NCBI GenBank assembly: GCA_947474705.1
Contig: CANJJS010000024.1
Span: 1 to 59,946 of the forward strand
From: Acetobacteraceae bacterium
GTDB lineage: Bacteria; Pseudomonadota; Alphaproteobacteria; Acetobacterales; Acetobacteraceae
Length of the DNA: 59,946 nt
Direction: 5' to 3'
A program made the translations under genes and the position numbers. Shown here in pieces: positions 27,745 to 54,484 of the stretch; positions within the stretch are counted from its first letter, which is position 1, and every line of letters begins with the position of its first letter. The notes under the pieces were generated by a model that was given only the letters and a program-made list of their open reading frames with translations, was not told where the DNA came from and ran no database searches.

Positions 27745-29067
27745 ATGAGTTGGTCCAACCGCGTTGTCTGGCGGGAAGGAATGTTCCTCCGGACCCAGCA
27801 TTTCCAACAGCAGGATCGCTGGACCGAGTCGTTGGTCCGCGGCGTCACCCGCGCCCTGCGTCCCCATGCCTGGGGTTTGATCGACTACGCGCTGGACCGC
27901 GACCTCCTCGGCACCGGCCGCTTCGCGCTCGCCTCGGCCTCCGGGCTGTTCGAGGACGGGACGCCCTTCAGCTTGCCGGGCGAGGCCGATCATCCGCCGC
28001 CGCTCGATGTCCCCGACAGCGCCCGTAACGCGCTGGTCTACCTGGCCTTGCCAATCCGCCAGGCCGGCGGCGTGGAAGTGTCCGACGACGGCAGCGAGGG
28101 CCGCTACAGTGCCCACCCGTTCGAGGCCTACGACACCCAGTCCGCCTCCTCGATCCCCGCCGAACTCGCCGTCGCGCGCCCCCGCATGCGCTACATGCTC
28201 GAAGCGGAGGAGCGCACGGGTTATCAGTGCATCGCGCTGGCCCGCGTCACCGAGGTGACCGCCGATCGCCGGGTGGTGCTGGACGATCGTTGGATCCCGC
28301 CCGCTTTGGTGTGTTCCGCCGTGACACCATTGGCGGGTCTGATCGCCGAACTCGCGGGCATGCTGAACCAGCGCGGCGAGGCACTGGCGGCACGCATGAC
28401 CGCGCCCGGCCAGGCCGGTGTCGCTCAGGTCGCGGATTTTCTGCTGCTGCAATCCATCAACGGCTGGCAAACCGTCGTGTCCCATTGGGCCGACGCCGCC
28501 AACATTCACCCTGAGGCCTTCTATACCGCGCTGGTGCAGATGGCCGGGGAATTCGCGACGTTCCTGGAAACGCGCCGTCCGAATTCCTATCCGGCGTACC
28601 GCCACGACGATCTGCAACGCAGCTACGCCCCCGTGGTCGCCGACCTGCGCCGCGCCCTCTCGGCGGTGCTGGAACAGACCGCCATCCCGATCCCGCTGCG
28701 CGAGGCGCGCCATGGCGTGCGTGTCGGGCCGATCACCGACCGCTCGGTCCTGCGCGCGTCGAACTTCGTGATGACGGTGCAGTGCGACATGCCCGCCGAG
28801 ATGCTGCGGCGGCTGTTTCCAACCCAGATCAAAATCGGCGCGGTCGAACAGATTCGCGAACTGGTCAACGCCGCGCTGCCGGGTATCGCGGTGCGGCCGC
28901 TCCCCGTCGCGCCACGGCAACTGCCGTTCTACGCGGGCGCGACCTACTTCGAACTCGACCGGGGCAGCCCGCACTGGGCGCAGATGCAGAACTCGGGTGG
29001 TTTCGCCATTCACCTCGCCGGTGAATTTCCGAATATCAAAATCGAACTATGGGCGATCCGCGGATGA
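27745..29067 (+). CDS. tssK: T6SS baseplate protein TssK
   Basis: A 440-residue protein linking the baseplate to the TssL/TssM membrane complex. The start VVWREGMFLRTQHFQQQDRW is the family hallmark, with RALRPHAWGL after it and LELDRGSP-like FELDRGSPHW near the end. The ATG at 27745 has AGGAGG 11 nt upstream; the longer open frame has none. The stop overlaps tssL by 4 nt. Confidence 0.96.
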   Translation: MSWSNRVVWREGMFLRTQHFQQQDRWTESLVRGVTRALRPHAWGLIDYALDRDLLGTGRFALASASGLFEDGTPFSLPGEADHPPPLDVPDSARNALVYLALPIRQAGGVEVSDDGSEGRYSAHPFEAYDTQSASSIPAELAVARPRMRYMLEAEERTGYQCIALARVTEVTADRRVVLDDRWIPPALVCSAVTPLAGLIAELAGMLNQRGEALAARMTAPGQAGVAQVADFLLLQSINGWQTVVSHWADAANIHPEAFYTALVQMAGEFATFLETRRPNSYPAYRHDDLQRSYAPVVADLRRALSAVLEQTAIPIPLREARHGVRVGPITDRSVLRASNFVMTVQCDMPAEMLRRLFPTQIKIGAVEQIRELVNAALPGIAVRPLPVAPRQLPFYAGATYFELDRGSPHWAQMQNSGGFAIHLAGEFPNIKIELWAIRG

Positions 29068-30431
29068 GCGACGATCCTTTCGCCGAACCAGACGATTCCG
29101 ACCGCACCGTCATCCGGCCCGCGCCGGGCGGACGCAGGGCGCCACCGCCCGCCGCCGCGGCGCAACCGGCGGCGGCCCCGCCCGTGGGGGCGCGGACCTC
29201 GCCCTTCGACAGCGCGCCCATGCCCGCCGCGCCGGTCTCGGGCGGCGCCGAAACCATCCAGTTCGGCCTGAACCCGCTGATCGTCGCCGCCGCGCCGCTG
29301 CTGCAACTGCTGGGCCGGTTGCGCATGACGGTCTCCGCGCCCAATATCGACGACCTGCGCGAGCGCACGGTCCGCCAGGTACGCCAGTTCGAAACCGCCG
29401 CCCGCGACGGCGGCGTCCCGCAGGACCAGCTCCGCCACGCCCATTACGCGCTATGCGCCAGCATCGACGACGTCGCGCTCAACACCCCCTGGGGGAGCAC
29501 CGGCGGCTGGGCCGCGCGATCCCTGGTCTCCACCTTTCACCAGGAAGTGCGCGCCGGCGAAAGGTTCTTCCGCATCCTGGAAGAGATGAAAACCGCCCCG
29601 GCGGTCAATTTGCCGGTCCTCGAGCTGATGTATTTCTGCCTCAGCCTCGGATTTCTGGGCCAGTACCGCCGCCCGCCGCGCCGGCCCGGCGAGATCGATC
29701 CGATCCGCGAAGACCTTTATACCATGATCGTACGGCAACGCGCGGTCACCGATCCCGCGCTGTCGCCGCATTGGCAGGGCGTCAACCTGCCCTATAAGCC
29801 CGCTCGCGGCATCGTGCCTACCTGGGTTATGGCCGCCGCCGCGCTCGGGATCGTCGGCGGCGTCTATATCTGGTTCTCCACCACCCTGAACGCCGCTTCG
29901 GACGACACATTCGCCAATATGATCGATGCGCCACAAACAAAGATGCCGGCCATCGCGCGCGTCGCCCCAGTCCGCCCGCCGGAGGTCCTGCCGCCCCCGC
30001 CCGAACCACTCTACGCCTTCCTGAAACCCGAGATCGACCAGGGCCTGGTCACGGTGCACGGCGATTACGCCATGCCGATCGTGCGCATCCGCAACCGCGG
30101 CATGTTCCCCTCCGGCAGCGCCACCATGGACCAAGGTTACTACCGCCTGATGGAGCGAATCGGAGAAGCGTTACGCGCCGAAAAAGGCCCGGTGCAGGTG
30201 ATCGGCTACACCGATAACCAACCCATCCGGACGGTCCGCTTTCCCTCCAACTACCAGCTCTCCGCCGCCCGCGCCGACGCCGCGCGCGACCTGATCGACC
30301 GGGCGCTGGGGCAACCCGGCCGCGTGACCGCGATCGGCAAGGCGGACGCCGACCCAATCGGGCCGAACGCCACCCCCGAAGGCCGCGACGCGAACCGGCG
30401 AATCGAAGTGATCCTGCGGAGGCAAGGCTAA
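29064..30431 (+). CDS. tssL: T6SS inner-membrane protein TssL with C-terminal OmpA-like domain
   Basis: A 455-residue evolved TssL/DotU. The N-terminal cytoplasmic tail, about 70 residues rich in Ala/Pro, contains DDSDRTVIRPAP with Thr15, placed like Agrobacterium TssL Thr14, which PpkA phosphorylates to recruit Fha; it also holds DPFAEP and TSPFDSAP. The DotU domain follows (YALCASIDDVALNTPWGS, LELMYFCLSLGFLGQYR). One membrane helix lies near 250-273, then a periplasmic peptidoglycan-binding domain (MFPSGSATMDQGYY, VIGYTDNQPI, ANRRIEVILRR). The ATG overlaps the tssK stop (ATGA). Confidence 0.95.
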   Translation: MSDDPFAEPDDSDRTVIRPAPGGRRAPPPAAAAQPAAAPPVGARTSPFDSAPMPAAPVSGGAETIQFGLNPLIVAAAPLLQLLGRLRMTVSAPNIDDLRERTVRQVRQFETAARDGGVPQDQLRHAHYALCASIDDVALNTPWGSTGGWAARSLVSTFHQEVRAGERFFRILEEMKTAPAVNLPVLELMYFCLSLGFLGQYRRPPRRPGEIDPIREDLYTMIVRQRAVTDPALSPHWQGVNLPYKPARGIVPTWVMAAAALGIVGGVYIWFSTTLNAASDDTFANMIDAPQTKMPAIARVAPVRPPEVLPPPPEPLYAFLKPEIDQGLVTVHGDYAMPIVRIRNRGMFPSGSATMDQGYYRLMERIGEALRAEKGPVQVIGYTDNQPIRTVRFPSNYQLSAARADAARDLIDRALGQPGRVTAIGKADADPIGPNATPEGRDANRRIEVILRRQG

Positions 30432-30435
30432 GACC

Positions 30436-33959
<3,524 letters not shown>

Positions 33960-33975
<16 letters not shown>

Positions 33976-34541
33976 ACGCTGGGCCCATCCGGGGCTTTTC
34001 CGGCAAGCTCCCGGCGCGCGGCGACTTCGTGCACGCCGGGCTCCCCAGGGATTTCAACGATCCCTGGCACGACTGGCAGTCGGCCGCGATCGCCGGGAGC
34101 CGTTCGCTGATGGGCGAAATCTGGCTCGAAGCCTTCCTGGAAGCGCCCGTCTGGCGCTTTGTCCTGACACCCGGCCTGTGCGGCCCCCGAGGGGCCATCG
34201 GATTGATCATGCCCAGCGTCGACAAGGTCGGCCGCTATTTCCCGCTGACCTTCGCCGCCCTGATCGCCGATACGGCGCCAGATCCCGCGGACTGGACGGA
34301 CTGGCTCGACGAAGCGGAAAACCTGGGCCGTCTCGCGCTTGACGAGGACGCTCCTCCCGAACGCCTGATGCCACCGCCCTGCCCCGCCCCCTCGGCCTCC
34401 TGGAACGGCGCCGCCTGCGCCTGGTGGACCGAAGGCGGCCCGCGGGTCGAAGCCACGTCACTGTCCCTCCCCTCCCTGCCCGGTGCCGCAAGTTTCGCGG
34501 CCATGTTGGGCTATCTCCCACCATCGGAGAGCGCGTCATGA
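33960..34541 (+). CDS. tagF: T6SS accessory protein TagF (ImpM)
   Basis: A 193-residue cytoplasmic protein. GFSGKLPARGDFVHAGLPRD and GLIMPSVDKVGRYFPLTFAA are diagnostic. TagF is a negative post-translational regulator in Pseudomonas and Agrobacterium, acting on Fha. Here it is separate rather than fused to PppA, but both genes overlap (ATGA), as expected for partners. Confidence 0.94.
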
Positions 34542-35275
34542 ACGCCGACCGGCTTCTCTCCTGGCACGCAACGCACCCGGGAACAAAACGAAAATACAAT
34601 GAAGACACCTGGGTCGATCGTCCGGATATCGGCGTCTGGGCCGTCGCCGACGGCGCCGGCGGACACCAGGCCGGCGAGGTCGCATCCGGCATGATCTCCG
34701 AGGCGCTCGATTCGCTGCCGCCGGAACTGTCCGCTTCCGAATTGCTGAGCGCCGTGCGGTCCCGCATCTCGGACACGCACCGGGCGTTGCGCGAGGAAGC
34801 GGAACGCCGCGGCAACAACACGATCATCGCATCGACCGTCGTCGCGTTTCTGGCGCGCGGCGAACATTTCGCATGCCTTTGGGCCGGCGACTCGCGCGCG
34901 TATTTGTTACGCGACGGCGAAATGCGCCAGATCACCAAAGATCACAGCCTGGTTCAGGAACTGGTCGATAACGGCACGATTCGCGAGGAGGACGCCGAAA
35001 AACATCCGCACGCGAACGTAATCACCCGGGCCGTCGGCGCGGATATCGAGGATTTGGTGCTGGACAAGGTCAGCGGGCGCCTGCAGCAAGGAGACAAGTT
35101 CCTGCTGTGCAGCGACGGTCTGTGCAAAACCGTCCCCTTCGATCAGATCGCCACGATGCTGCGGGACGATCACGGCGTGCCGTCGCCGCAAACCCTGATC
35201 GCCGCGGCCCTGACGCTGAACGTCACGGACAACGTCACGGCGGTAGCCATCGAGATCCCCAGCCGCCCCGCCTGA
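34538..35275 (+). CDS. pppA: PP2C-type Ser/Thr phosphatase PppA
   Basis: A 245-residue PPM phosphatase. Metal-site motifs are present: RKYNEDTW (18-25), VADGAGGHQAGE (36-47), WAGDSRAYLLRDG, ITRAVG and LNVTDNVTAVAI. In threonine-phosphorylation-controlled T6SSs it reverses PpkA action and dampens firing. The ATG at 34538 overlaps the tagF stop. It is the last gene of operon A, followed by a strong bidirectional terminator. Confidence 0.93.
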   Translation: MNADRLLSWHATHPGTKRKYNEDTWVDRPDIGVWAVADGAGGHQAGEVASGMISEALDSLPPELSASELLSAVRSRISDTHRALREEAERRGNNTIIASTVVAFLARGEHFACLWAGDSRAYLLRDGEMRQITKDHSLVQELVDNGTIREEDAEKHPHANVITRAVGADIEDLVLDKVSGRLQQGDKFLLCSDGLCKTVPFDQIATMLRDDHGVPSPQTLIAAALTLNVTDNVTAVAIEIPSRPA

Positions 35276-35283
35276 CCGAAACA

Positions 35284-35314
35284 AAAAGGGCCGGGATTTG
35301 CATCCCGGCCCTTT
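35284..35314. terminator. Bidirectional terminator between pppA and hcp1
   Basis: GGGCCGGGAT-TTGC-ATCCCGGCCC is a perfect 10-bp stem (35288-35311). AAAAA precedes it on the plus strand (U tract for the minus-strand hcp transcript) and TTT follows it (for the plus-strand transcript). Confidence 0.88.
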
Positions 35315-35336
35315 CGAATTTGGCGCCTTCGCCAGA

Positions 35337-35813
35337 TCAGCTCAGCGTGTGCTTCGTCAGATCGTACGTCTTCATCTTCGGCGTCACGGCCACACCCTTC
35401 ACGTCGAAGAACGTCGGCTTGTATTCGACCTTCGAGAAGTTCAGCGACACGCTCTCATGCGGACGCTCGCCGCCCGAAGAGGTCGACCAGCCGGACACGC
35501 CCGTGTCCCACAGGGTCACGTGCAGATATTCCTTGTTTTCAGCATCGGCCAGCGTGAACGAGAAGTCCACCTGGGTCTTCAACGGACCGGTCAGCGCGTC
35601 GGAGAACAGGTCCAGGGTCGCGGGATCGAGCGCTTTGGTGATCGTGATCTCGGACACCGAAGCGTGCGAGCCCTGACGGTTCGCGCCGCTACCGGCGGCG
35701 GAATGAATGGCGCGGCCAACACCGAACTGGAACGAATGGCACATGATCCATTCTTTGTACTGCGTGGTGTCGACGTCGCCCTTCGACGTGCCAAACTTCA
35801 TGTAAATCGCCAT
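35337..35813 (-). CDS. hcp1: T6SS tube protein Hcp (TssD), copy 1
   Basis: A 158-residue tube subunit, secreted and also a carrier for small effectors. Family features: MAIYMKFGTSKGDV, WIMCHSFQFGVGRAI, VSEITITKALDPATLDLFS and YLHVTLWDTGVSGW. It differs from copy 2 at one residue only (Thr153 here, Ala there). It has its own 279-bp upstream region and lies downstream of copy 2's terminator, so it probably has an independent promoter. AGGAG precedes the ATG. Confidence 0.96.
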   Translation of the reverse strand: MAIYMKFGTSKGDVDTTQYKEWIMCHSFQFGVGRAIHSAAGSGANRQGSHASVSEITITKALDPATLDLFSDALTGPLKTQVDFSFTLADAENKEYLHVTLWDTGVSGWSTSSGGERPHESVSLNFSKVEYKPTFFDVKGVAVTPKMKTYDLTKHTLS

Positions 35814-36036
35814 CGTGCCGCTCCTGTTCCGTGAATTGAGACAAATTAGCCAGCGAAGCCCGTTACGGTTACCACCGGTGCAACGCGCGACAGGTTACTC
35901 TCGTTCGTGATACGATTATGTCGAGCCGTTCGGGCCGCGACCATCTCGATATTGATAACAGATGAGGCGCCTGAAAGGAAGATTAATTTTACGAAGCATT
36001 TATCAAATATGTCCCGCGAGATGGCCTGGGCTCGCG
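35814..36036 (-). promoter_or_regulatory. Probable hcp1 promoter region
   Basis: A locally AT-rich stretch between the hcp2 terminator and hcp1. On the minus strand TTGATA, with TAATCT 15 nt later, is a rough promoter-like pair, and further AT-rich segments lie nearer the gene. The exact start site cannot be set by eye. Confidence 0.4.
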
Positions 36037-36069
36037 AAAAAAAGGCCGGGGACAATCCCCGGCCTCTTT
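36037..36069 (-). terminator. Terminator after hcp2
   Basis: AGGCCGGGGA-CAA-TCCCCGGCCT is a perfect 10-bp stem (36043-36065). Seven A residues on the plus strand give the U tract for the minus-strand transcript. Confidence 0.88.
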
Positions 36070-36092
36070 AACATGCGCGGAAATTCCCGCGA

Positions 36093-36569
36093 TCAGCTCA
36101 GCGTATGCTTCGCCAGGTCGTAGGTCTTCATCTTCGGCGTCACGGCGACACCCTTCACGTCGAAGAAGGTCGGCTTGTATTCGACCTTCGAGAAGTTCAG
36201 CGACACGCTCTCATGCGGACGCTCGCCGCCCGAGGAGGTCGACCAGCCGGAAACGCCCGTGTCCCACAGGGTCACGTGCAGATATTCCTTGTTTTCGGCA
36301 TCGGCCAGCGTGAACGAGAAGTCCACCTGGGTCTTCAGCGGACCGGTCAGCGCGTCGGAGAACAGGTCCAGGGTCGCGGGATCGAGCGCTTTGGTGATCG
36401 TGATCTCGGACACCGAAGCGTGCGAGCCCTGGCGGTTCGCGCCGCTACCGGCGGCGGAATGAATGGCGCGGCCGACGCCGAACTGGAACGAATGGCACAT
36501 GATCCATTCTTTGTACTGCGTGGTGTCGACGTCGCCCTTCGACGTGCCGAATTTCATATAGATAGCCAT
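36093..36569 (-). CDS. hcp2: T6SS tube protein Hcp (TssD), copy 2
   Basis: A 158-residue protein identical to copy 1 except Ala153 for Thr. It follows clpV by 39 nt, so it is likely co-transcribed with it, then terminated at 36037-36069. Near-identity at the DNA level over the whole gene, with unrelated flanks, suggests recent duplication or gene conversion. Confidence 0.96.
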   Translation of the reverse strand: MAIYMKFGTSKGDVDTTQYKEWIMCHSFQFGVGRAIHSAAGSGANRQGSHASVSEITITKALDPATLDLFSDALTGPLKTQVDFSFTLADAENKEYLHVTLWDTGVSGWSTSSGGERPHESVSLNFSKVEYKPTFFDVKGVAVTPKMKTYDLAKHTLS

Positions 36570-36608
36570 CTTACTTCTCCCTTGATGGAAACAGCGGTGG
36601 AAGTCTTG

Positions 36609-39257: not shown

Positions 39258-39295
39258 GTGTCCCCTTCCGGCGCCGGGCGCGGCGTAGTACCGAT

Positions 39296-39313: not shown

Positions 39314-39390
39314 GTATCAGTCGCTGGCGACGCGTCCTGTCGTGCCGATACTGTAGGTGCTATTTTGAGGCATTGTCCAGAAAGAAAGGC

Positions 39391-41222: not shown

Positions 41223-42713
41223 ATGTCGGGCGCGCAAACGGACTCCCAGGCCGCCGGCGGCGAAGTCTCCGAAGGCTTTTCCATTCTCGATCAGGTGGTC
41301 GCGGCCACCAAGCAGACGGCGCCGGATCAAACCCAGGATCTGATGAAGACCCTGGTCGAGCAGGCGATGTCGGGCACGGTGACGTTCGATAAGAACATCT
41401 CGCGCACTTTCGACCGCGCCATCGCGGCGATCGATCAGAAGCTGTCCACGCAGCTCAACGCGATCATGCACGATCCGAAGTTTCTGAAGCTGGAAGGCTC
41501 CTGGCGCGGACTGCACTATTTGGTCATGAACTCAGAGACAAGCACCAGCCTGAAGATCCGGCTGCTGAATGCCTCGAAGCGCGACCTGTCTCGCGATCTG
41601 CAACGCGCGGTCGAGTTCGACCAAAGCCAGTTGTTCAAGAAGATCTACGAAAACGAATTCGGCACGCCCGGTGGCGAGCCCTATGCGTCGCTGATCGGCG
41701 ATTACGAGTGGACGCAGCATCCCGACGATATTGAGACGCTGCGTTTGATCTCCAACGTCGCGGCCTCGGCCTTCGCGCCGTTCATCTCGGCGGCGGGTCC
41801 GGGCATGTTCGGCTTCGACAGCTACACCGAACTGTCCAAGCCGCGCGATCTCGCGAAGATATTCGAGACCAGCGAATACATGAAGTGGCGGTCGTTCCGC
41901 GACAGCGAGGATTCTCGTTTCGTGTCGCTGGTGATGCCGCGCACGCTGGCGCGCCTTCCTTACGGCGAGGCGACGAAGGCGATTGACGAGTTCAACTACG
42001 AAGAAGCGCCCTTCGATGTGACCGGCGCGGCCAAGCCGATGGGGCACACCGAGTATTGCTGGATGAACGCGGCCTACGCGATGGGCACGCGTCTCACCGA
42101 TGCGTTCGCGCAGTACGGGTTCTGCACCGCGATCCGCGGCGCCGAAGGTGGCGGTAAGGTCGAGAACCTGCCGACGCACGTGTTCACCTCGGACGATGGC
42201 GACATGGACGCCAAGTGCCCGACGGAAATCGCGATCACCGATCGACGCGAGTTCGAACTGTCGAATCTCGGGTTCCTGCCGCTTTGCCACTACAAGAACA
42301 CCGACTATTCGGTCTTCTTCGGCGCGCAGACCACGCAGAAGCCCAAGAAATACGACCGTCCGGAAGCGACCGCGAACGCCGCGATCTCCGCCCGCCTGCC
42401 CTACATCATGGCGACGTCGCGCTTCGCGCATTATCTGAAGGTTATGGCGCGCGACAAAATCGGCTCCTTCATGGAAGCCGACGATGTGGAGCGTTGGCTG
42501 AACCGTTGGATCATGAACTACGTGAACGGCAGCGAAGGCGCCGGGCAGGACTCCCGCGCGCGGTATCCGCTGCGGGAAGCGCAGGTTCGCGTGCAGGAAA
42601 TCCCGGGCAAGCCGGGTTCCTACAACGCCGTGGCGTATCTGCGTCCTTGGTTGCAGATGGAAGAACTGACCACCAGCCTGCGCATGGTGGCCCGTATCCC
42701 AGCCGCCTCCTGA
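41223..42713 (+). CDS. tssC: T6SS sheath protein TssC
   Basis: The large sheath subunit, 496 residues. [77 protein letters not shown] and [19 protein letters not shown] are characteristic. The N-terminal extension ([16 protein letters not shown]) is of the kind that carries the ClpV-recognised helix in VipB. Confidence 0.97.
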
Positions 42714-42747: not shown

Positions 42748-44289
42748 GTGAATGAGACCGCCCCCGTCATCGACGAATTCGCCGCGCAAGCGGCGGACGC
42801 CGATGGCGGGGGTGTTTCGTTCGCGTCGCCCAATATCCGCGACCTGATTCTGTCAGGCCGTTTCATCGGCAACAAAAATCAGGACCTCGAAGACGCCCTC
42901 ATCGAGTTCCTCTCCGCCGAATCCGACGAGGCCTGGGCTTTTTGGCGCCCCGAAAGTTTCTCTGGCAACAAACGTGCTTTGCTGGATCGCGACATCGCCG
43001 CGATCGACGCGATGATGTGCGAACAACTCGACGCGGTGCTGCACTACGATCGGCTGCGGCGGCTGGAAGGAAGCTGGCGCGGTCTGGCCTGGCTGATCGA
43101 TGGGATGGACCATGGCGCGCGGCTGAAGGTCAAACTGCTCAACGCATCCTGGCAGGAAATCTGCCGCGATCTGGAACGCGCCAGCGAGTTCGACCAGAGC
43201 CATTTGTTCCGCAAGGTCTACGAAGAAGAATTCGGCATGCCCGGCGGGGAACCGTACGGGCTGCTGATCGTCGATCACGAAATCCGCCACCGACCCACCG
43301 CCGCGGCGCGGACCGACGACATGGGGGCGCTGACGCACCTCGCCGGCATTTCCGCCGCCGCCTTCTGCCCGACGATACTGGGGGGGTCCCCGTCACTGCT
43401 GGAAGTCGACGATTTCGCCGACCTCGCGACGGTGATGGACATCGCCGGCCCGCTACGCAATCCGGACCACGCACGCTGGCGCAGTCTGACGGGACGCGCG
43501 GACACGAGATTTCTGGGGATCGCGATCCCGCGCCTGCTGGCCCGTGCGCCATGGGAAGACGACGGCACCCGCGCCGATGGCTTCAGATATAAGGAATACG
43601 CGCCAGAGGCGAAGGACCGCGTCTGGATGTGCGCCGCCTACGCCTTCGGTCAGGTGGTCGCGCGTGCCTTCGCGTCCAGCGCCTGGCCGGGCGATATCCG
43701 CGGCGCCGATCAGGACCGGCTGGGCGGCGGCCTGGTCGCCGACATGCCGATTGAACCGTTCCGGACCGATCCGGGGACGACATGGATTCGCAAATCGGTT
43801 GAGATTGTCTGGAACGATCGCCAGGAACGGGAATTGCTGGACGCGGGCCTGATCCCGCTCGCCGCGATCCCTTACGCCGACGAACTGGTTTTCGGCGCGG
43901 CCCGCAGCCCGCTGATCGCGCAACGATACACCGGCGCCAACGCCGAGGCGGCGAATGCCAACGCCAGACTTTCGACCCAGATCAATACGATCCTGTGTGC
44001 CTCCCGATTCGCGCACTATCTGAAAATGATGGGCCGCCAAATGGTCGGCTCGTTCAAAACGCCCGAGGAAATCGAGGACGTTCTGGACAGTTGGATCAAG
44101 AAATACGTCCGTAGCAACGCGCCCTACGAAACCCGCGCGCGTTACCCTCTGATCGGGGGAAAGGTTTCGGTATACGAACACCCAGGCAAACCCGGGAGCT
44201 ACGGCTGCACCGTGCAGTTGCAACCGCACTACCAAATCGACGACGTCGCGGCGTCGTTCCAACTTGTAACCGATCTCGGCGGGCGATGA
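42748..44289 (+). CDS. Second TssC-like protein (ImpD type)
   Basis: A 513-residue TssC paralogue with a GTG start 34 nt after tssC. It keeps the fold-defining segments ([76 protein letters not shown]) but has an unrelated N-terminus ([20 protein letters not shown] and on to [12 protein letters not shown]) and other divergences. Paired TssC genes occur in alphaproteobacterial T6SS loci, such as the imp locus of Rhizobium (ImpC, ImpD). Its place in the sheath or baseplate is unsettled. Confidence 0.88.
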
Positions 44290-44305
44290 CCCGCGAGGAG
44301 AACCC

Positions 44306-47435: not shown

Positions 47436-47445
47436 TACAACGGGC

Positions 47446-48504
47446 ATGACACAACGTTCCCCGCTGGCGCTCCTGCGTAAGGAGCCGCGCCGTTTCGCCT
47501 TCGACGCGGCCATCCGCCTGCTGACGATCGCCCGGAAACAACCCGACCCGGCGGAGATCGCGCGCTTCCGCACCCCGGGCGGACTGACCTATCCGCCCGC
47601 CGATATCCTGGACATCCGGGGCGGCGGACCCGCCGATAAACTGCCGCCCGACGTGACCATCGGCATGATGGGCCTGACCGGCCCCTCCGGCGTTCTGCCC
47701 AGGCATTACTCTGACACCGTGGTGCAGGCGTCGCGCGCCCGGTCGTCGTCGCTGCACAGTTTCCTCGACCTGCTGGGACACCGCTTCGTCGCCTTCTTCG
47801 CCCGCGCCGGCGCCAAATACCGGCCCGCCCGCGCCGCCGACACCGCCGCCTTGAAGACCCCGCCGGCGCCCGATCCGATCGCCCAGATCCTGCTATCGCT
47901 GATGGGCTACGGCACCGCCCACCTGACCGAGCGCATGCTGATCCCGCGCGAAACGCTCCTGCACTACGCGGGCCTTTTCGCGATGCGCCCCCGCTCCGCC
48001 GAGCGTCTGGGCGCCCTTGTCTCCGACTGGCTGGGCATGCGGGTCGAGGTCGTCGAATTCGTCGGCGCGTGGCTCAGCCTGCCGCCCGACCAACGGACCC
48101 GCATCGGCGCCAACGGCCAGTTCAACCAACTCAGCGCGACCGCCGCCGCCGGCATACGGGCCTGGGATCCGCAGGCGCGAATCATTCTGCGCATCGGCCC
48201 GCTGGACCGGGCCGGCTTCGAACGCCTGCTGCCCGATCGCCTCGCGCTGCACCGGCTGGTTTCGCTGGTGCGTGCTTACGCCGGCTATGAAATCGGCTTC
48301 GCGATCAATCCGGTCCTGCGCGCGGACGCGGTGCCACCCCTGCGACTCTCCGCCGCCGAGGATCCGGCGCCACGTCTCGGCTGGAACACCTGGCTCGAAC
48401 CGGTGGCGGGCGGGCGGCGGCGCGGCGGCGACGCCGGCGAGCCCATCTTCGACGCGGAAATCATCGAGGCACAACGCCTCTCGGAAAAGGACATGGCGGC
48501 ATGA
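47446..48504 (+). CDS. tssG: T6SS baseplate protein TssG
   Basis: A 352-residue protein. PRRFAFDAAIRLL and MMGLTGPSGVLPRHYSDTV are diagnostic, with FLDLLGHRFVAFFARA, GLFAMRPRSAERLGALVSDW and RLGWNTWLE near the end. TssG forms a wedge with TssF. The next gene overlaps its stop by 4 nt (ATGA). Confidence 0.96.
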   Translation: MTQRSPLALLRKEPRRFAFDAAIRLLTIARKQPDPAEIARFRTPGGLTYPPADILDIRGGGPADKLPPDVTIGMMGLTGPSGVLPRHYSDTVVQASRARSSSLHSFLDLLGHRFVAFFARAGAKYRPARAADTAALKTPPAPDPIAQILLSLMGYGTAHLTERMLIPRETLLHYAGLFAMRPRSAERLGALVSDWLGMRVEVVEFVGAWLSLPPDQRTRIGANGQFNQLSATAAAGIRAWDPQARIILRIGPLDRAGFERLLPDRLALHRLVSLVRAYAGYEIGFAINPVLRADAVPPLRLSAAEDPAPRLGWNTWLEPVAGGRRRGGDAGEPIFDAEIIEAQRLSEKDMAA

Positions 48505-50000
48505 GCGGTTGGGGCGGCGGATACGTCACGGACATCCCATATTCCATCGGCTGGTATCGCAACCAGTCGCCGGTGCGGATGGCGATCGCGGCCGTTATCG
48601 GCGGCGCGGAAGCCCAGATCCCGACGGGCGACGACACGATCGCCATGCTCGAACTGGGCTGCGGGTACGGCCTGACCTCCCTGGCCCTCGCGGCCAGCAA
48701 TCCCAACTGGAAAGTCTACGCGGTCGATTTCAACCCCGCCCATATCGCCGTCGCCCGCGAATGGGCGGCCGAGGCCGGCCTGACCAACATCACGTTCATC
48801 GAAGGCGACTTCTCGACCTGGGAGGACGATCCGGCGATGCGGGGGCTGCCGGCGATGGATTTCGTCACCCTGCACGGGATCTGGACCTGGATCCCGCCTG
48901 TCGCGCAAGCCGGGATCGTCCGCCTGCTGGCGGCGAAGGTCCGGCCCGGCGGCCTCGTTCATATCAGCTACAACGCCATCTCCGGCTGGACCGAAATGAT
49001 CCCGGTCGCGCGCCTGATCCGCGAAGCCGGGCGCCGCGCCGGCGGCGCCAGCGACCATCGCGCCAGCGAAGGCATGAAACTCGTCCGCGAACTCATCGCG
49101 GCCGACGCGCATAGCCTCGCAGGCAACAGGACCGTGTCCAGCCGCATGGAGATGCTGGGGGAAGCCAACACCACCTACCTCGCCCATGAATTCATGAATG
49201 AACACTGGGCGCCCGTTTTCCTGTCCGATCTGCAGGAAACCCTTGCCGGCGCCAAGCTGGAATGGGTTGCCGCCAGCGAAATGACGGAAAACTTCCCCGA
49301 ACTGGTCATGAGCGAAAAGCAGCGGGAGATCTTTCACCGCTACCCCGATCGCATGATGCAGGAACTGGTCAAAGACCTCTGCACGCCCCGGTCCCTCCGC
49401 AGCGACATCTTCGTGCGCGGCGCGAACCGGATCCGCCCGCACGAGCGCACGCAAATCCTGATGGATGTCGCCCTGGCCCTGGTCAAACCGCCCGGCGACC
49501 TCCCCAAAACCCTGAACGTCGCGGCCGGGCAGGCGGAACTCAATCCGGAATTTTACGAACCGATCGTGCGCGCGCTCAGCACCCGCCCCTGGCGCGTCCG
49601 CGATCTGCTCGCTTTGCCGAATGTCATTGGCCGCCGCGACAATCCCGCCGAACTCATCGCCATTCTGTCGGGCGCCGACATGGTCGAACCGGCGATCCGG
49701 CCGATGACCGCGCCTGGCGCGGAAGCCATCCGATTCAATATGGTCACCGCCCGCCGGTTGATCCGCAAAGGCGCGTCGAACAGCATGGTCGCCCTCGCCT
49801 GCCGCCCGACCGGCATGCCGATCGCCACGCCGCTGGTCGGACTGGCGCTGGTCTATCATTACGAAAACGGGATCACCGACGTCGAAGGGTTACTTGAGGC
49901 CATCGAACCGCCCGAAGATCGAATCGACGACGCGCGCAAGGTCGTTATCGCATTTCTGGAACGGCACCTGCCGGCCTGGCGCCTCGCCGGCGCCGTCTGA
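48501..50000 (+). CDS. SAM-dependent methyltransferase with regulatory domain, PKMT-like, coupled to tssG
   Basis: A 499-residue class I methyltransferase. Motif I is LELGCGYGL (50-58), then VYAVDFNPAHIAVAREWA, FIEGDFSTWEDDPAMRGLPA and VHISYNAISGWTEMIPV. The middle part (about 215-330) resembles the methyltransferase regulatory domain, and the C-terminal 170 residues, starting near LRSDIFVRGANRIRPHER, resemble the rest of rickettsial protein-lysine methyltransferases (PKMT), which modify the surface protein OmpB. That family link is from memory. The start overlaps tssG (ATGA), making it the last gene of operon C. Target unknown; a T6SS component or surface protein is my inference. Confidence 0.85.
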   Translation: MSGWGGGYVTDIPYSIGWYRNQSPVRMAIAAVIGGAEAQIPTGDDTIAMLELGCGYGLTSLALAASNPNWKVYAVDFNPAHIAVAREWAAEAGLTNITFIEGDFSTWEDDPAMRGLPAMDFVTLHGIWTWIPPVAQAGIVRLLAAKVRPGGLVHISYNAISGWTEMIPVARLIREAGRRAGGASDHRASEGMKLVRELIAADAHSLAGNRTVSSRMEMLGEANTTYLAHEFMNEHWAPVFLSDLQETLAGAKLEWVAASEMTENFPELVMSEKQREIFHRYPDRMMQELVKDLCTPRSLRSDIFVRGANRIRPHERTQILMDVALALVKPPGDLPKTLNVAAGQAELNPEFYEPIVRALSTRPWRVRDLLALPNVIGRRDNPAELIAILSGADMVEPAIRPMTAPGAEAIRFNMVTARRLIRKGASNSMVALACRPTGMPIATPLVGLALVYHYENGITDVEGLLEAIEPPEDRIDDARKVVIAFLERHLPAWRLAGAV

Positions 50001-50013
50001 TCCCCGCCACGCC

Positions 50014-50046
50014 GGCGCGGGCGCCAATCGCCTTGGCGCCCGCGCC
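50014..50046 (+). terminator. Strong hairpin at the end of operon C
   Basis: GGCGCGGGCGCCAA (50014-50027) and TTGGCGCCCGCGCC (50033-50046) form a perfect 14-bp stem with a 5-nt loop, 13 nt after the methyltransferase stop. No U tract follows, so termination may be incomplete or the hairpin may stabilise the 3' end. Confidence 0.6.
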
Positions 50047-50254
50047 GCCCGCCTCTCAACACCTCCATGGCACCCGGCGAGATCCAAGACGTCGCCGGAA
50101 TCCGCCCGTTCCAGGTACCGCGAACCATGAAAACCGCCCATGCCGTCTTCCGGCGGCATGGCCAGAGGCCGGTCTTCGGCCGCCCCGACCATTTCCGTCT
50201 CGCATCCCGAAAAAAAAGATTGTCACGGGCACTTGGATTCCGCACCGAGAGTAT

Positions 50255-50283
50255 TTGATTTTGGGCACGGAGCACCCTATTAT
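50255..50283 (+). promoter_or_regulatory. Sigma70-like promoter of the OmpA-family gene
   Basis: TTGATT (50255-50260), a 17-nt spacer, then TATTAT (50278-50283) is a near-consensus promoter, about 45 nt before the start codon. AAGGAGG at 50315-50321 is the ribosome site. Confidence 0.7.
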
Positions 50284-50328
50284 CCAACTCACCAAGATTT
50301 ATTCCATGCCGATCAAGGAGGTTTTACC

Positions 50329-50970
50329 ATGCGCGGGTTCATGAAGCCCATTGCCGCCGTTCCCTTCGCCATGCTGGCGTCGTTGGGATTGAGCGGGACC
50401 GCGTCGGCCCAGCAATCGGCCGACCAAATCATCTCGGCGTTGAAGCCCAGTGGCAACCTCGCCTCCGGCTCCACCCGAGGCATCAAGCTCGGCGGCGGCG
50501 CCGCGCCGCAGGCCGCGCCCGCCCCGGTGGCTCGCCCGGTTTCCGTCGCGCCGTCGGCGCCACGGGTGGAACGCCAGGCACCCGCCCGGCCGGCTCCCGT
50601 CGCCGCGGAACCCGTCTCCGGGCCATCGGTGAACCTAACGGTCAACTTCCCGAGCGGTTCCTCCGACCTCACGCCCGCCGCTCGCGCCTCCCTCGATGCC
50701 CTGGGCAAAGCCCTCTCGTCCAGCGAACTGGCGAACTTCCGCTTCCGGATCGAAGGCCACACCGACAACGTGGGCTCGCGCGACGAAAACCTCGCGCTGT
50801 CGCAGCGCCGCGCGGAAGCCGTCGTGGCCTATCTCACCAGCCAGTACAGCGTCCAGGCCGGACGGCTCCAGGCAGCCGGGATGGGTCAGGAACGCCCGGT
50901 CGTTGAAACGGCCCCGCAAACCCCGGAAGCGCGCAACCGGCGTGTCCAGGTGATCAACCTCGGCACCTAA
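50329..50970 (+). CDS. OmpA-family peptidoglycan-binding protein
   Basis: A 213-residue periplasmic protein. Signal peptide MRGFMKPIAAVPFAMLASLG is followed by cleavage after ASA (residue 27). Then come a Pro/Ala-rich stretch of about 70 residues and a C-terminal OmpA-like domain with FPSGSSDLTPAARASLDAL, RIEGHTDNVGSRDENLALSQ RRAEAV and EARNRRVQVINLG. There is no beta-barrel, so it is a soluble or loosely attached cell-wall binder. It is expressed from its own promoter and has a terminator, inside the T6SS region. TssL already has such a domain, so its T6SS link is positional only. Confidence 0.9.
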   Translation: MRGFMKPIAAVPFAMLASLGLSGTASAQQSADQIISALKPSGNLASGSTRGIKLGGGAAPQAAPAPVARPVSVAPSAPRVERQAPARPAPVAAEPVSGPSVNLTVNFPSGSSDLTPAARASLDALGKALSSSELANFRFRIEGHTDNVGSRDENLALSQRRAEAVVAYLTSQYSVQAGRLQAAGMGQERPVVETAPQTPEARNRRVQVINLGT

Positions 50971-50998
50971 AGCACGAACAGGGAATACACCGAAACGA

Positions 50999-51026
50999 CG
51001 CGCGGGCCCGGCCCGCGCGTTTTTTT
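50999..51026 (+). terminator. Rho-independent terminator after the OmpA-family gene
   Basis: CGCGCGGGC-CCG-GCCCGCGCG, a perfect 9-bp stem, followed by seven T residues. Confidence 0.93.
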
Positions 51027-51202
51027 GCGATCTGGCGGATTGCCTCATGTGTCTCGCCCACTGATATCGCGCTTGCCCTCCCACGGCACGTAAGGCATCC
51101 TCAGCGCGTTCAATCGCGCTCCGATTCTCGCCGCCACGCGAAGTGGCCGCGCAAACGTCCAACAGGAATCCAGGCCTCAACCATGCTCATGACGATGCCA
51201 GG

Positions 51203-52444
51203 ATGCCGGCCCCAATAGACGAAGACGCCACCATCCGGGTGGCACCGTCCGCGAATCCGGCGAGCGCGCGCCCCGTGGAAGCCGCCGCCGCGAACAGCCC
51301 GCCAGCCGCGCCTCCCGCCGCCGCGCCGGGCCCGGCCCAGAAAACGAACCGCGCGGTACCGATTGCCGCTGCCGTGCTCCTGACCATGGGCGCGGGCGCC
51401 GGCTGGTTCTTGTGGCCGGCCGCCACGCCGACCCGCTCTCCCGATGCCGCGCCCCTTCCCGCCTCGCCAGGTCCGCTCGCGCTCCAGACCCCGCCCGCCG
51501 GACCGCAATCGCCGCCCATCGCCGAGCCCCCCACGCCAACACCAGCGACCGGAAACCCAACGCCACCGTCCGTCGCGGAAAATCCTGGATCGCCGCCAAT
51601 GCAAGGCCGGCCCAGTCCGGCATGGCCGCGAGATTTCCAAATTGAGATCGCCGACGAACAGCGCATCCGCGATCATCGGGTTCCCGCTGCCGGCCCCTCC
51701 TTGTCGGTCTTCCGCTTCGCGCCCAATCCGCGAGTCCTGGTTCTGGTGTTCGCGTCGTTGCGCGAACAAGGCAACATGCTGAACCGCGCGGCCGCCTTCG
51801 TGGAAAAGGCCAACCAGCCGCATGACCGGGTGCTCACCGATCCGGAACTGGACGCCGCCATCCGCGCCGGCGGCGATACCGTCGAGACATTCTATTATGG
51901 CCACGATTATGGCGCGCCGGATTTGACTCGTTTTTTCGCGCTCGCCGATCGAGCCAGTGTGCGGCTGACCGAAGAGGAGGAAGCGCTACGCCGCCTGCTG
52001 GCCCGGGAACGATGGTTCGAGCCCAACGCGATTGGCGGGCTCCTGTCCATTCCCCAGATCGGCGCCGATTCGCACGTCACGCCGGACGCGCGCGCCGCGA
52101 TCCTGCACCACGAATTGTCGCACGGCGAATATTTCACCAACCCCGCTTACGCGGCCTTCGTCCGGAAGTTCTGGAACCAAACTCTGACAGCGGGCGAGCG
52201 CGATCGCATGCGGCGCTTTTTGCTCTCGCTGGGCTACGAGCCGGGGCTGGAGCATGTCGTGGAGAATGAAGCCCAGGCCTATTTGATGTTCACGGAAAGC
52301 GCGGATTTCTTCACGCCGGAGATGGTTGGCATGACTAAGGCGCGGCTGACCGAATTGCGTAACACCTTTTACCGGGCCATGCCGGCAGGGTGGTTACGCG
52401 ACGATCTGGGCGGCGCCATCGCCGCCGCCACGAAGCGGCACTGA
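51203..52444 (+). CDS. Membrane-anchored protein with an HExxH zinc-peptidase motif, T6SS-linked
   Basis: A 413-residue protein from ATG 51203 (a GTG at 51143 would add 20 residues). The short N-terminal cytoplasmic tail carries DEDATIRVAP (Thr10); one helix spans about 51-71 (AVPIAAAVLLTMGAGAGWFL); a Pro-rich linker follows; the rest should be periplasmic. HHELSH at 302-307 gives HExxH, with ENEAQAYL at 354-361 placing Glu356 as a candidate third ligand of a gluzincin-like site. I do not recognise the family; peptidase activity is inferred from the motif only. The gene lies between ompA-like and ppkA, converging on ppkA with a 6-nt gap. The tail resembles the TssL phospho-site. Confidence 0.78.
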   Translation: MPAPIDEDATIRVAPSANPASARPVEAAAANSPPAAPPAAAPGPAQKTNRAVPIAAAVLLTMGAGAGWFLWPAATPTRSPDAAPLPASPGPLALQTPPAGPQSPPIAEPPTPTPATGNPTPPSVAENPGSPPMQGRPSPAWPRDFQIEIADEQRIRDHRVPAAGPSLSVFRFAPNPRVLVLVFASLREQGNMLNRAAAFVEKANQPHDRVLTDPELDAAIRAGGDTVETFYYGHDYGAPDLTRFFALADRASVRLTEEEEALRRLLARERWFEPNAIGGLLSIPQIGADSHVTPDARAAILHHELSHGEYFTNPAYAAFVRKFWNQTLTAGERDRMRRFLLSLGYEPGLEHVVENEAQAYLMFTESADFFTPEMVGMTKARLTELRNTFYRAMPAGWLRDDLGGAIAAATKRH

Positions 52445-52468
52445 CGCGGTTTATTTCAACCGCGTTTC
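52444..52468. terminator. Bidirectional hairpin between convergent HExxH and ppkA genes
   Basis: ACGCGGTT-TATTTC-AACCGCGT is a perfect 8-bp stem (52444-52465) overlapping the last base of one gene and the last codons of ppkA; TTTC follows on the plus strand. It probably ends the plus-strand transcript and may also act on ppkA. Confidence 0.6.
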
Positions 52469-54484
52469 AATGGGCATGGCCGTCGCGGTGATGCGCGCGC
52501 CGCGCGCTTTCGCCGCTTCCACGGCTTTTTTCAGATCCGCCAAATAGGTCACCGCCTTTTCCACGTTCGCGGTCCGGGGACGGTCGAACAGCGCGTCCTC
52601 CGACATCACCGCGATGATCAGATCGGTTCCATAGGGTTCGTCGACCTGCCAGCCGCGATTGTTCGGGCCTGGCTCGCCCAGCGTGACCTGTTCCCCGGGT
52701 TCGAAGGTTCTGGGCCGATCCGCGGCCAGACGCTCCTTCGGATCGCCGAGTTGCGGATACAGATGCTGCACGTTGCCTTCGCGGTCGATGTAATCCACAT
52801 GCAGTTCGCCCCGGAAGTCGCCCATGGTCAGGCGCGGGCGGATATACTCGTCCTTTGGCAACCAGGCTGGATCGCCGGCGAGCCGCAGGGTCAGGCGAGC
52901 ACCGGTCTCGCCGAAAGTTTTGGCGATGGGACGGAGCGTATCGATCCAGGCGCAGAAGACCTGATCGACCTGCCGGACCCGCGGATTGGGCGACGGGCGC
53001 CCCAGGTTCACGCCACCGATTTTCTGGCGGATCGCGTCGATCGCGGACTTTCCACCGGTGCCGGTCAGCAACGCCAGGCCATCGCGCACATCGCCGTCGA
53101 ACAAGGAGCACGAAAGCCGCTCGAGGTAGCCCGCGATGTCGCGCCGCGCGAGGTCCGCCATTTCGGCGGGCGTGGGTGGCGGCGGCACAACCGCGACCGG
53201 CGGGTTCGTGGGCGGTGGCTGCACCACAGGGGGTGGGACGACGGGCGGTTGAACCACGACCGGCGGCGACGAAACGGGCGGCTGGGTCACCGGTGGCTGC
53301 GTTACGGGCGGCTGAGCCACCGATGGCTGCGTTACCGGCGGCTGCGTCACCGGCGGTTGGCCAACGATCGGCGGTGACGGCTGCGGTTGCGGCTTTGGCG
53401 TTGGGCCGGGCGCGAGCAGGAAATACCCAAGCCCCCCCAGGATCGCGAGGCCTCCGGCCCCCGCACCAAGGATCAATGGCAGCTTCGATGACTGCCCCGC
53501 CGTGTTCGCCCCCGCTGTGGGACGTGGGGGCGGCGGCGGAATCACCGCCGAGGCGATCGACGCGACCGACATGTTCGACGCAGGTCCCGCCGCGACGGGC
53601 GCGGGCGACGACATCATGGTCGCGTCGGCGTCGGGTTCGTCCGGCGCGGCACCCGCCGCCGGACCGTTCATCGCGACGCGAATCGCCGCCATGAAGTCCG
53701 CCGCCGAGGCGAAACGATCCTCCGGCCGCTTCGCCATCGCCTTTTTCACCACGCCGTCGAAAGGTCTCGGCGCGGTCACGGAAATCTGCGATGGCGACGG
53801 CGCTTCGGTGTTCAGCGCCTTATGCATGATCGCCGACATGCTGCCTTCGAACGGCCGCTCGCCGGTCAGCAATTGGTACAACAATACGCCCGACGAGTAG
53901 ATGTCGGACCGCGAATCGACGACCTGGCCCATGAACTGTTCGGGCGACATATAAGCCGGCGTCCCCAGCACCGTCCCGGCCTGAGTCATCGACGAACTCT
54001 CGATGCGCGCGATGCCGAAATCCGCGATCTTCGCCTGCCCGCCCTTTGTCAGCATCAGGTTCGCGGGTTTGATATCGCGGTGCACGACGCCGCGTTCGTG
54101 ACTGAACTGCAACCCCGCGAGCAGGTCTTCCATGATTTGCGCGATCGTCGTCAGCGGGAACCGTTCTTTCTTGTCCAAAAGGTTCTTCAGCGACGGCCCG
54201 TCGACATATTCCATGACGATGTAGGCGAGGTCCTTGGTCTCGCCATAATCGAACACGCCGACGATGTTGGGATGTGTCAGCCGCCCGGCGGCCTGCGCCT
54301 CACGCCGGAACCGCGCGATTTCCTCGGCGGTTTCCTCGTCCGCTTCTTCCGGCAGGCGGACGGTCTTGATCGCGACGATCCGTTCGATGACCGGATCGAA
54401 TCCTTCGTAGACGGTCCCCATGGCGCCTTTTCCGAGCGTGCGCCTGATCGCGTATTTACCAAGGGTTTCGACCGCCTGGGACAT
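52451..54484 (-). CDS. ppkA: T6SS-associated Ser/Thr protein kinase PpkA with DUF4384-like periplasmic domain
   Basis: A 677-residue membrane kinase. The kinase domain (about 10-270) is complete: GKGAMGTVY loop (18-26), VAIK Lys40, HRDIKPANLM with Asp137, DFG at 155-157, GTPAYMSPEQ. The juxtamembrane linker carries DEPDADATMMSS (Thr289), then one helix (335-357), a Pro-rich stalk with PPVTQ repeats, and a C-terminal periplasmic domain with two cysteines (LSCSLF, VFCAWID) and a DUF4384-like core (GELHVDYIDREGNVQHLYP). PpkA phosphorylates T6SS components to trigger assembly. On the minus strand it follows the CHAT lipoprotein gene by 43 nt, so it probably shares that transcript. TagH, PppA and TagF on operon A support the T6SS role. 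Confidence 0.93.
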   Translation of the reverse strand: MSQAVETLGKYAIRRTLGKGAMGTVYEGFDPVIERIVAIKTVRLPEEADEETAEEIARFRREAQAAGRLTHPNIVGVFDYGETKDLAYIVMEYVDGPSLKNLLDKKERFPLTTIAQIMEDLLAGLQFSHERGVVHRDIKPANLMLTKGGQAKIADFGIARIESSSMTQAGTVLGTPAYMSPEQFMGQVVDSRSDIYSSGVLLYQLLTGERPFEGSMSAIMHKALNTEAPSPSQISVTAPRPFDGVVKKAMAKRPEDRFASAADFMAAIRVAMNGPAAGAAPDEPDADATMMSSPAPVAAGPASNMSVASIASAVIPPPPPRPTAGANTAGQSSKLPLILGAGAGGLAILGGLGYFLLAPGPTPKPQPQPSPPIVGQPPVTQPPVTQPSVAQPPVTQPPVTQPPVSSPPVVVQPPVVPPPVVQPPPTNPPVAVVPPPPTPAEMADLARRDIAGYLERLSCSLFDGDVRDGLALLTGTGGKSAIDAIRQKIGGVNLGRPSPNPRVRQVDQVFCAWIDTLRPIAKTFGETGARLTLRLAGDPAWLPKDEYIRPRLTMGDFRGELHVDYIDREGNVQHLYPQLGDPKERLAADRPRTFEPGEQVTLGEPGPNNRGWQVDEPYGTDLIIAVMSEDALFDRPRTANVEKAVTYLADLKKAVEAAKARGARITATAMPIETRLK

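What the first reader, a model, noticed from the sequence alone, without database searches (positions are those of the whole stretch)
29064..54484. A shared acidic-threonine motif in TssL, the HExxH protein and PpkA suggests a common phospho-docking signal for the FHA protein
Three cytoplasmic tails or linkers contain a similar short motif: DDSDRT-VIRPAP in TssL (Thr15), DEDAT-IRVAP in the HExxH protein (Thr10), and DEPDADAT-MMSSPAP in the PpkA linker (Thr289). All lie in disordered Ala/Pro-rich sequence at the cytoplasmic face. Seen directly: the motifs. Known: in Agrobacterium, PpkA phosphorylates TssL Thr14, which recruits Fha. Inferred: PpkA marks itself and the undescribed HExxH protein in the same way, bringing both into the TagH-bound assembly.
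Basis: partly seen in the sequence, partly recalled or inferred. Interest (0 to 1): 0.8.

Follow-up and report, generated by a model that had tools for sequence, protein, structure and literature searches.

The report
Shared phospho-tag on secretion-machine proteins
Three membrane proteins of a bacterial spear-gun (type VI secretion system) carry the same short threonine tag, kept in their relatives while the sequence around it drifts, which probably lets one kinase mark them for a common scaffold protein; one of the three is a protease-like protein that no searched library names.

Summary
Their mere presence means nothing: a loose rule gives 21 hits in 28 window proteins, 20.2 in shuffles. 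Their conservation does: rule kept in 62 of 70 TssL, 59 of 70 HExxH and 44 of 59 PpkA rows, against at most 4 of 8 for the 12 other hits that could be followed. A TssL-trained matrix finds the tag in 40 of 70 HExxH tails and 16 of 34 PpkA linkers, 0.7 and 0.34 expected. In four genomes without a type VI system the HExxH protein lacks the tag (4 of 4), but PpkA keeps it where readable (3 of 3). Four genomes with TagH also have an untagged HExxH protein. So docking to TagH is well supported, by analogy and evolution, for TssL, fairly for HExxH, and only partly for PpkA, whose tag must have a second, TagH-independent use. Phosphorylation and binding are untested. No Pfam, NCBIfam or PDB relative of the HExxH protein was found.

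The parts
29064..30431 (+). TssL (DotU + OmpA-like, long form), N-terminal tag DDSDR-T15-VIRP; Thr codon 29106-29108
   Evidence: Pfam DotU 7.4e-64; tag by rule in 74 of 81 family rows with at least 30 residues upstream of the domain
51203..52444 (+). HExxH protein: N-terminal tag DEDA-T10-IRV (codon 51230-51232), one TM segment, periplasmic HExxH...E domain
   Evidence: No Pfam/NCBIfam match; H303, E304, H307, N355, E356 invariant in 61 sequences; tag by rule in 60 of 70 rows not cut by a contig end
52451..54484 (-). PpkA: Hanks kinase, linker with tag DADA-T289-MM (codon 53620-53618), TM, periplasmic C-terminal half
   Evidence: Pfam Pkinase 6e-56; linker tag by rule in 33 of 38 rows, 30 of 34 after removing second partial copies
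25223..27166 (+). TagH (FHA scaffold): FHA domain with Arg30 and Ser46; own Thr511 (FRIEQ-T-MIR, codon 26753)
   Evidence: TIGR03354 1.7e-81, PF20232 6e-52; Thr present in 24 of 24 sequences found with an NPLKF anchor pattern, which is not every TagH fetched
34538..35275 (+). PppA-type phosphatase, the expected antagonist of PpkA
   Evidence: recognised by eye from the translation; no profile run
50329..50970 (+). OmpA-domain protein, common upstream neighbour of the HExxH gene (the frame opens at 50140)
   Evidence: Pfam OmpA 2.8e-22; synteny
54528..57191 (-). CHAT-TPR protein next to PpkA, frequent member of the neighbourhood
   Evidence: Pfam CHAT 2.3e-41; synteny

Best explanation
The tag [DE]-x-[DE]-x-Thr-[V/I/M/L] is a phospho-docking signal of the type VI threonine-phosphorylation pathway. 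The effect would be to gather the membrane complex, the kinase and a membrane-anchored periplasmic metallopeptidase on one scaffold, with PppA to undo it. Shown here: position, conservation, Thr rather than Ser, no fourth recurrent tagged family in the scan made, absence of the HExxH tag in four genomes without the system. Inferred: phosphorylation, FHA binding, co-recruitment, and peptidase activity. The PpkA tag has in addition a TagH-independent role, probably autophosphorylation that recruits or regulates through another partner.
For: Conservation singles out these three sites among the 15 hits that could be followed. Per-position information at -4..+3 (Thr left out) is 2.47 bits in HExxH tails against 0.50 further out, 2.49 against 0.88 in PpkA linkers, 2.9 against 1.6 in TssL, where neighbouring residues are conserved too (windows were picked by the rule, so acidity and +1 are partly built in, while -2 in particular and +2/+3 are not). 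Cross-family test without that circularity: TssL-trained matrix (69 windows, Thr itself not scored), 40 of 70 HExxH tails and 16 of 34 PpkA linkers above 99% of their own shuffles; 0 of 70 and 0 of 34 in two control stretches; a third control was badly cut and overlaps the tag, 14 of 62. A pooled matrix over 9011 open frames left no fourth recurrent family: the largest other clusters held 7 loci, with hits at differing places. HExxH tag against genome content: 48 of 52 rows tagged with a type VI system, 0 of 4 without (Fisher 1.9e-4); tag against TagH 43/5/2/6, p 3.3e-4; with 9 of the 13 named rows added 50/5/4/6, p 8.6e-4. These p values ignore kinship. Sister pair in one genus: G119 (with system) DEAIDSEATVRLPRKRSYGRPADRP, G033 (without) PPESQASINPPRSRQYGRPADRP, flank kept and tag gone. 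More Lys/Arg before than after the TM in 62 of 72 rows puts the tail in the cytoplasm. Kinases of other architecture near type VI genes are tagged by rule in 7 of 13 (1.45 expected), on unplaced contigs 6 of 10 (1.03 expected), elsewhere 0 of 6 (0.44 expected, so a weak control). Precedent: A. tumefaciens Fha binds DLPpTVVEI of TssL (PMC3953482 section 9).
Against: No phosphorylation or binding data for this organism. Independent pairs on the tree are too few: 3 on supported branches (6 on all), tag and TagH going the same way in 2.2 of 3 on average, not significant. Four TagH-bearing genomes (G059, G072 and those of L036, L039) have an untagged HExxH protein, and five tagged ones (G035, G087, G091, G105, G147; 84-96% complete) lack a TagH match. 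G002 and G074 have TssC but no TagH match and no HExxH tag, so the tag follows TagH or the subtype of system rather than the system as such. The PpkA tag survives in the three readable genomes without the system. Side chains differ: +3 is Leu/Val/Ile/Met in HExxH, Arg in TssL, Ala/Ser in PpkA, so one FHA domain may not bind all equally. Published affinity for the TssL peptide is weak (0.54-1.58 mM). One mycobacterial FHA protein is reported to bind pSer as well (PMC4238996, abstract), so Thr-only is not proof of an FHA reader. The HExxH protein of G412, another family, with type VI genes beside it and a tagged TssL, has no tag.
Confidence: 0.6

Rival explanations
1. The PpkA linker threonine is a juxtamembrane autophosphorylation site that serves the kinase itself (or another FHA protein) and has nothing to do with TagH; only TssL and HExxH are TagH ligands.
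For: Tag kept in G015, G033 and G106, which have no TssC, DotU or TagH match; the StkP juxtamembrane domain is phosphorylated on several threonines, which favours recruitment of division proteins (PMC12077195, abstract); each of these three genomes has one FHA-domain match.
Against: Kinases near type VI genes are tagged at varying places (linker in most of the tagged ones, in front of the kinase in L330/L331), 7 of 13 by rule, against 0 of 6 elsewhere, though 0.44 was expected there; this speaks weakly for a role tied to the pathway.
Confidence: 0.3
2. The threonines are PpkA substrates whose phosphorylation changes the tagged protein itself (stability or conformation), without any FHA docking.
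For: In A. tumefaciens, Thr14 substitutions also lowered TssL and TssM stability, and TssM conformation depended on TssL phosphorylation (PMC3953482 discussion, part 1).
Against: The tag lies in tails of variable length, disordered in the window protein's model (residues 1-18 pLDDT under 50), and Ser did not replace Thr under the rule (0 of 72), which suits a pThr-specific FHA reader better than a mere charge switch.
Confidence: 0.15
3. The tag is an unphosphorylated short linear motif that binds the kinase or another folded partner.
For: No phosphorylation was measured; acidic-hydrophobic motifs are common docking motifs (general knowledge).
Against: Thr kept and not exchanged for Ser and the A. 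tumefaciens precedent.
Confidence: 0.1
4. Chance resemblance in acidic Ala/Pro-rich linkers.
For: The raw number of such motifs in 28 window proteins equals the shuffled expectation (21 against 20.2).
Against: Orthologue conservation and the cross-family matrix test.
Confidence: 0.02

Closest known systems
TssL Thr14 - Fha docking in Agrobacterium tumefaciens (PMC3953482)
   Same: N-terminal cytoplasmic Thr of TssL followed by two aliphatic residues (DLP-T-VVEI there, DSDR-T-VIRP here), PpkA, Fha with Arg30 and Ser46, TagF and PppA (there a fusion).
   Different: That paper states the site is conserved in Agrobacterium/Rhizobium but not in distant TssL; here 74 of 81 rows of the family have it by rule and, by eye, about ten of 13 long-form TssL of other alphaproteobacterial genomes. 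No HExxH or PpkA tag in the parts of the paper seen.
Fha threonine phosphorylation by PpkA (P. aeruginosa Thr362, S. marcescens Thr438, A. citrulli Thr640)
   Same: TagH here has a conserved Thr511 in FRIEQ-T-MIR (24 of 24 anchored sequences), probably that site (equivalence recalled, not aligned).
   Different: Site in a conserved C-terminal region of the scaffold rather than a disordered tail.
RtkS, TagQRST, TssW: envelope inputs of PpkA
   Same: Envelope proteins that act with PpkA or its periplasmic domain (PMC6082577 passages; PMC12607579 passages and section 8).
   Different: The HExxH protein carries a metallopeptidase signature and a cytoplasmic tag; its sequence was not compared with RtkS, TagR or TssW directly.
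StkP juxtamembrane domain phosphorylation (PMC12077195, abstract)
   Same: Phosphothreonines in the linker between kinase and membrane favour recruitment of machine components.
   Different: Cell-division kinase of a Gram-positive bacterium, several sites, no FHA reader mentioned in the abstract.

Membership tests
Type VI threonine-phosphorylation pathway (PpkA-PppA-TagH) | Hanks kinase with TM and periplasmic part, FHA scaffold and PP2C-type phosphatase in the cluster | tested here: met
   Pkinase 6e-56, TagH 1.7e-81; phosphatase and TM by eye only
Type VI threonine-phosphorylation pathway (PpkA-PppA-TagH) | pThr-binding Arg and Ser in the FHA domain | tested here: met
   Arg30 and Ser46 of TagH, same numbers as the residues mutated in PMC3953482
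FHA-read TssL (A. tumefaciens type) | Conserved N-terminal Thr with hydrophobic +1/+2 | tested here: met
   74 of 81 rows by rule
FHA-read TssL (A. tumefaciens type) | Phosphorylation by PpkA and phospho-dependent binding of the FHA protein | not testable with these tools
   needs phosphoproteomics and peptide binding
HExxH protein as FHA-read client | Tag kept where TagH is present and absent where the system is gone | tested here: inconclusive
   50/5/4/6 over 65 rows, p 8.6e-4 ignoring kinship, but only 3 independent supported pairs and 4 counterexamples
PpkA linker as TagH-read client | Tag absent where TagH and the system are absent | tested here: not met
   kept in G015, G033, G106
Zinc metallopeptidase (HExxH + distant Glu) | HExxH and a further acidic ligand invariant | tested here: met
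   H303, E304, H307, E356 invariant in 61 rows; that E356 is the ligand is inference
Zinc metallopeptidase (HExxH + distant Glu) | Match to a known peptidase family or fold | tested here: not met
   no Pfam/NCBIfam match, no PDB match at E 0.001 by sequence (best peptidase leishmanolysin at 0.66) or fold

The most novel reading that the evidence does not exclude
A position-independent phosphothreonine tag serves as a common boarding pass for the type VI machine: kinases of several architectures, TssL and an undescribed membrane metallopeptidase acquired the same short motif, so that one kinase-FHA pair can assemble membrane complex, kinase and a periplasmic peptidase at one site, and the peptidase loses the pass when the machine is lost.
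Probability: 0.4. Interest if true: 0.75.

Novelty: new variant of a known kind. Interest (0 to 1): 0.62.

Why it matters
Only the scaffold Fha and TssL are named as PpkA substrates in the papers seen here; what the kinase does to the rest of the machine is open. A readable tag gives a concrete list of further candidate substrates (the kinase itself and the HExxH protein), a sequence rule with which to look for more in other genomes, and a first functional handle on a conserved metallopeptidase-like family that the searched libraries do not name. It also suggests that the TssL site is more widespread than reported.

Tried and rejected
Raw enrichment of the motif in the window: none (21 against 20.2), so presence alone was dropped as evidence. 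A fourth tagged family: the pooled-matrix scan left 152 frames outside the three families; the 22 clusters printed are small (at most 7 loci), with hits at differing places (CHAT, TagH, VgrG-like, TssK frames) or in single genomes; rejected, with the limits that the matrix was trained on the three families and that only the fetched loci were scanned. Fold search of the HExxH model (pLDDT 80.6) gave 92 matches, none at E 0.001; the weak peptidase names in that list are not used. Pfam over 61 members: one member with a marginal match (CwsA 0.0061), rejected. One control (TssL linker, 14 of 62) was badly cut and overlaps the tag; disregarded. A first tag/TagH table (43/6/2/6) mislabelled the second copy of G058 and was replaced. 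Phylogenetic pair test: underpowered. Paper searches: type VI + Acetobacteraceae + PpkA, 0 papers; type VI + HExxH + metalloprotease + FHA domain, 1 paper, on polymorphic toxins, listing only; Fha1 + T362 + PpkA + phosphorylat, 0. That no HExxH or PpkA tag was found in print rests in the held open-access library, mostly as listings. Papers: PMC3953482 (abstract, section 9, discussion part 1 of 2, passages), PMC12607579 (abstract, section 8, passages), PMC6082577 (passages), PMC12077195 and PMC4238996 (abstracts); the rest only as search listings.
Full report
What is there. The window holds a type VI secretion cluster; close relatives of its HExxH protein lie in records labelled Acetobacteraceae. 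The cluster has TagH (FHA + T6SS_FHA_C), TssL (DotU + OmpA), PpkA (Hanks kinase, linker, TM, periplasmic half), a PppA-type phosphatase (by eye) and, convergent with ppkA, an HExxH protein with an N-terminal tail, one TM segment and a domain of about 270 residues.

Chance. A rule wide enough to include all three (Thr, at least two acidic residues in -5..-1, V/I/L/M at +1) fires 21 times in 28 window proteins, 20.2 expected after shuffling. So three look-alikes in one cluster would prove nothing.

Conservation in detail. By rule, TssL 74 of 81, HExxH 60 of 70 (the window's own included), PpkA 33 of 38, or 30 of 34 after removing second partial copies. Four of the five PpkA misses still have Thr in the same place. 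The residue at -2 is acidic in 98-99% of the tagged windows of each protein although the rule did not ask for that position; +1 is mostly Val/Ile in TssL and HExxH and Met/Leu/Val in PpkA; TssL goes on with Ile-Arg, HExxH with Arg-Leu/Val, PpkA with Val/Ile-Ala. Away from the tag the HExxH tail carries about 0.5 bits a column and the PpkA linker 0.9, against about 2.5 inside. In TssL the N-terminus MSDNPFxEP...PGG is conserved as well, so there the tag is part of a longer conserved stretch. Ser in place of Thr under the same rule: 0 of 72 HExxH tails; a plain alignment puts Ser in the column in 2 of 70. A matrix trained on TssL alone recognises the tag in 40 of 70 HExxH tails and 16 of 34 PpkA linkers, with 0 hits in two control stretches and a third control spoilt by overlap with the tag. 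The three proteins therefore share one motif.

Topology. In the HExxH rows Lys/Arg are concentrated before the TM (250 against 89; more before in 62 of 72 rows), so the tail is most likely cytoplasmic and the HExxH domain periplasmic. Residues 1-18 of the window protein are modelled with pLDDT under 50.

Distribution and the natural experiment. HExxH relatives occur in 59 of 150 sampled genomes of the family, commonly in the order OmpA - HExxH - PpkA (convergent) - CHAT, in many loci beside type VI genes. In a class-wide sample 5 of 289 genomes matched, the window's own and four from two other families; those four have no tag by eye. Eleven of the 59 HExxH-bearing genomes lack a TagH match; four of these also lack TssC and DotU matches and so seem to have no type VI system (G015, G033, G080, G106). 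All four have an untagged HExxH protein. G033 and G119 belong to one genus: the flank RSYGRPADRPLIPAGGG / RQYGRPADRPLLPAGGG is kept, the tag is missing only where the system is missing. Over 56 family rows tag and system go together (48/0/4/4, p 1.9e-4; with TagH 43/5/2/6, p 3.3e-4); with nine named genomes added 50/5/4/6, p 8.6e-4; none of these p values allows for kinship. Against this: two of the added genomes (L036, L039) and G059, G072 have TagH and no HExxH tag; G002 and G074 have TssC but neither TagH match nor tag; the pairs that are independent on the tree are only three on supported branches, and the sign test cannot be significant.

PpkA differs. In G015, G033 and G106 the PpkA linker keeps its tag although TagH is absent; G080 had no match to the PpkA C-terminal half. 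So the PpkA tag cannot exist for TagH alone. On the other hand kinases of other architecture near type VI genes are tagged, by rule 7 of 13 with 1.45 expected (several of the 13 have almost no readable linker; one of the seven hits, L325, lies late in the stretch and may be chance; three rule misses still look tagged by eye: L317, L326, L328), against 0 of 6 kinases elsewhere, where 0.44 was expected, and 6 of 10 on contigs that cannot be placed, 1.03 expected. L330 and L331 carry several DEPTTI-like copies in front of the kinase. The kinase tag thus looks typical of this pathway but has a further use, for which juxtamembrane phosphorylation of StkP is a model (PMC12077195, abstract).

Mechanism. 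In A. tumefaciens PpkA phosphorylates TssL Thr14 and Fha binds DLPpTVVEI through its pThr-binding residues Arg30 and Ser46, weakly (0.54-1.58 mM; PMC3953482). TagH here has Arg30 and Ser46, and its own Thr511 in FRIEQTMIR is present in 24 of 24 anchored sequences. The simplest reading is that PpkA writes and TagH reads the same tag on TssL and on the HExxH protein, bringing a periplasmic metallopeptidase-like protein to the assembly site; PpkA, which interacts with membrane and baseplate components in A. citrulli (PMC12607579 section 8), would mark itself as well. What the peptidase cuts is unknown; local trimming of envelope proteins or shaping of the PpkA periplasmic half are both open, and the survival of OmpA-HExxH-PpkA-CHAT without a type VI system (L132, L165, L167) says that the module has a job of its own.

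Compared with what is known. The paper on TssL Thr14 says the site is not conserved in distant TssL; here 74 of 81 rows of one family have it by rule, and about ten of 13 long-form TssL from other genomes of the class look tagged by eye (no rule count). The HExxH protein has no match in Pfam or NCBIfam and none in the PDB by sequence or fold at E 0.001; of 61 members scanned against Pfam one had a marginal match; NCBIfam was asked with the window protein only.

Verdict.

Noticed in passing
window 50329-57191 and L132, L165, L167: OmpA - HExxH - PpkA - CHAT (with a PppA-like match in L165 and L167) is present in genomes with no TssC, DotU or TagH match, so it looks like an envelope signalling module that type VI clusters have adopted.
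   Followed up: partly
L259, L262 (family f42): HExxH relatives without window-type type VI genes in the fetched stretch sit next to large exoprotein frames that look like two-partner secretion proteins (by eye), L259 also next to a CHAT match; the window also has a large repetitive frame (57121-59925, no Pfam match) beside the CHAT gene.
   Followed up: partly
L330, L331 (N-terminal of the kinase): Kinases beside type VI genes with several acidic-Thr copies (DEPTTI, DEPTSI, EVTTIL) in a long N-terminal extension, as if the docking tag had been multiplied.
   Followed up: no
L293, L295, L312, L328: Kinases beside type VI genes, three of them from other alphaproteobacterial genomes, carry DDRTI / DDDATRI / GDRTVV stretches in front of the kinase domain instead of behind it.
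   Followed up: partly
window 26753 (TagH Thr511): TagH itself has a conserved Thr in FRIEQ-T-MIR before NNPLKF, resembling the TssL tag T-V-I-R; probably the classical Fha phosphorylation site (recalled).
   Followed up: partly
window 35337-35813 and 36093-36569, minus strand: Two Hcp genes in tandem, 157 of 158 residues identical (Pfam T6SS_HCP on the first of them).
   Followed up: yes
window 41223-42713 and 42748-44289: Two TssC-like genes in a row (TssC1 and a divergent TssC2), also in the six named loci L034-L039.
   Followed up: no
window 48501-50000: A methyltransferase with a MethyTransf_Reg domain sits inside the type VI operon between tssG and the OmpA gene, and also in many of the fetched loci.
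   Followed up: no
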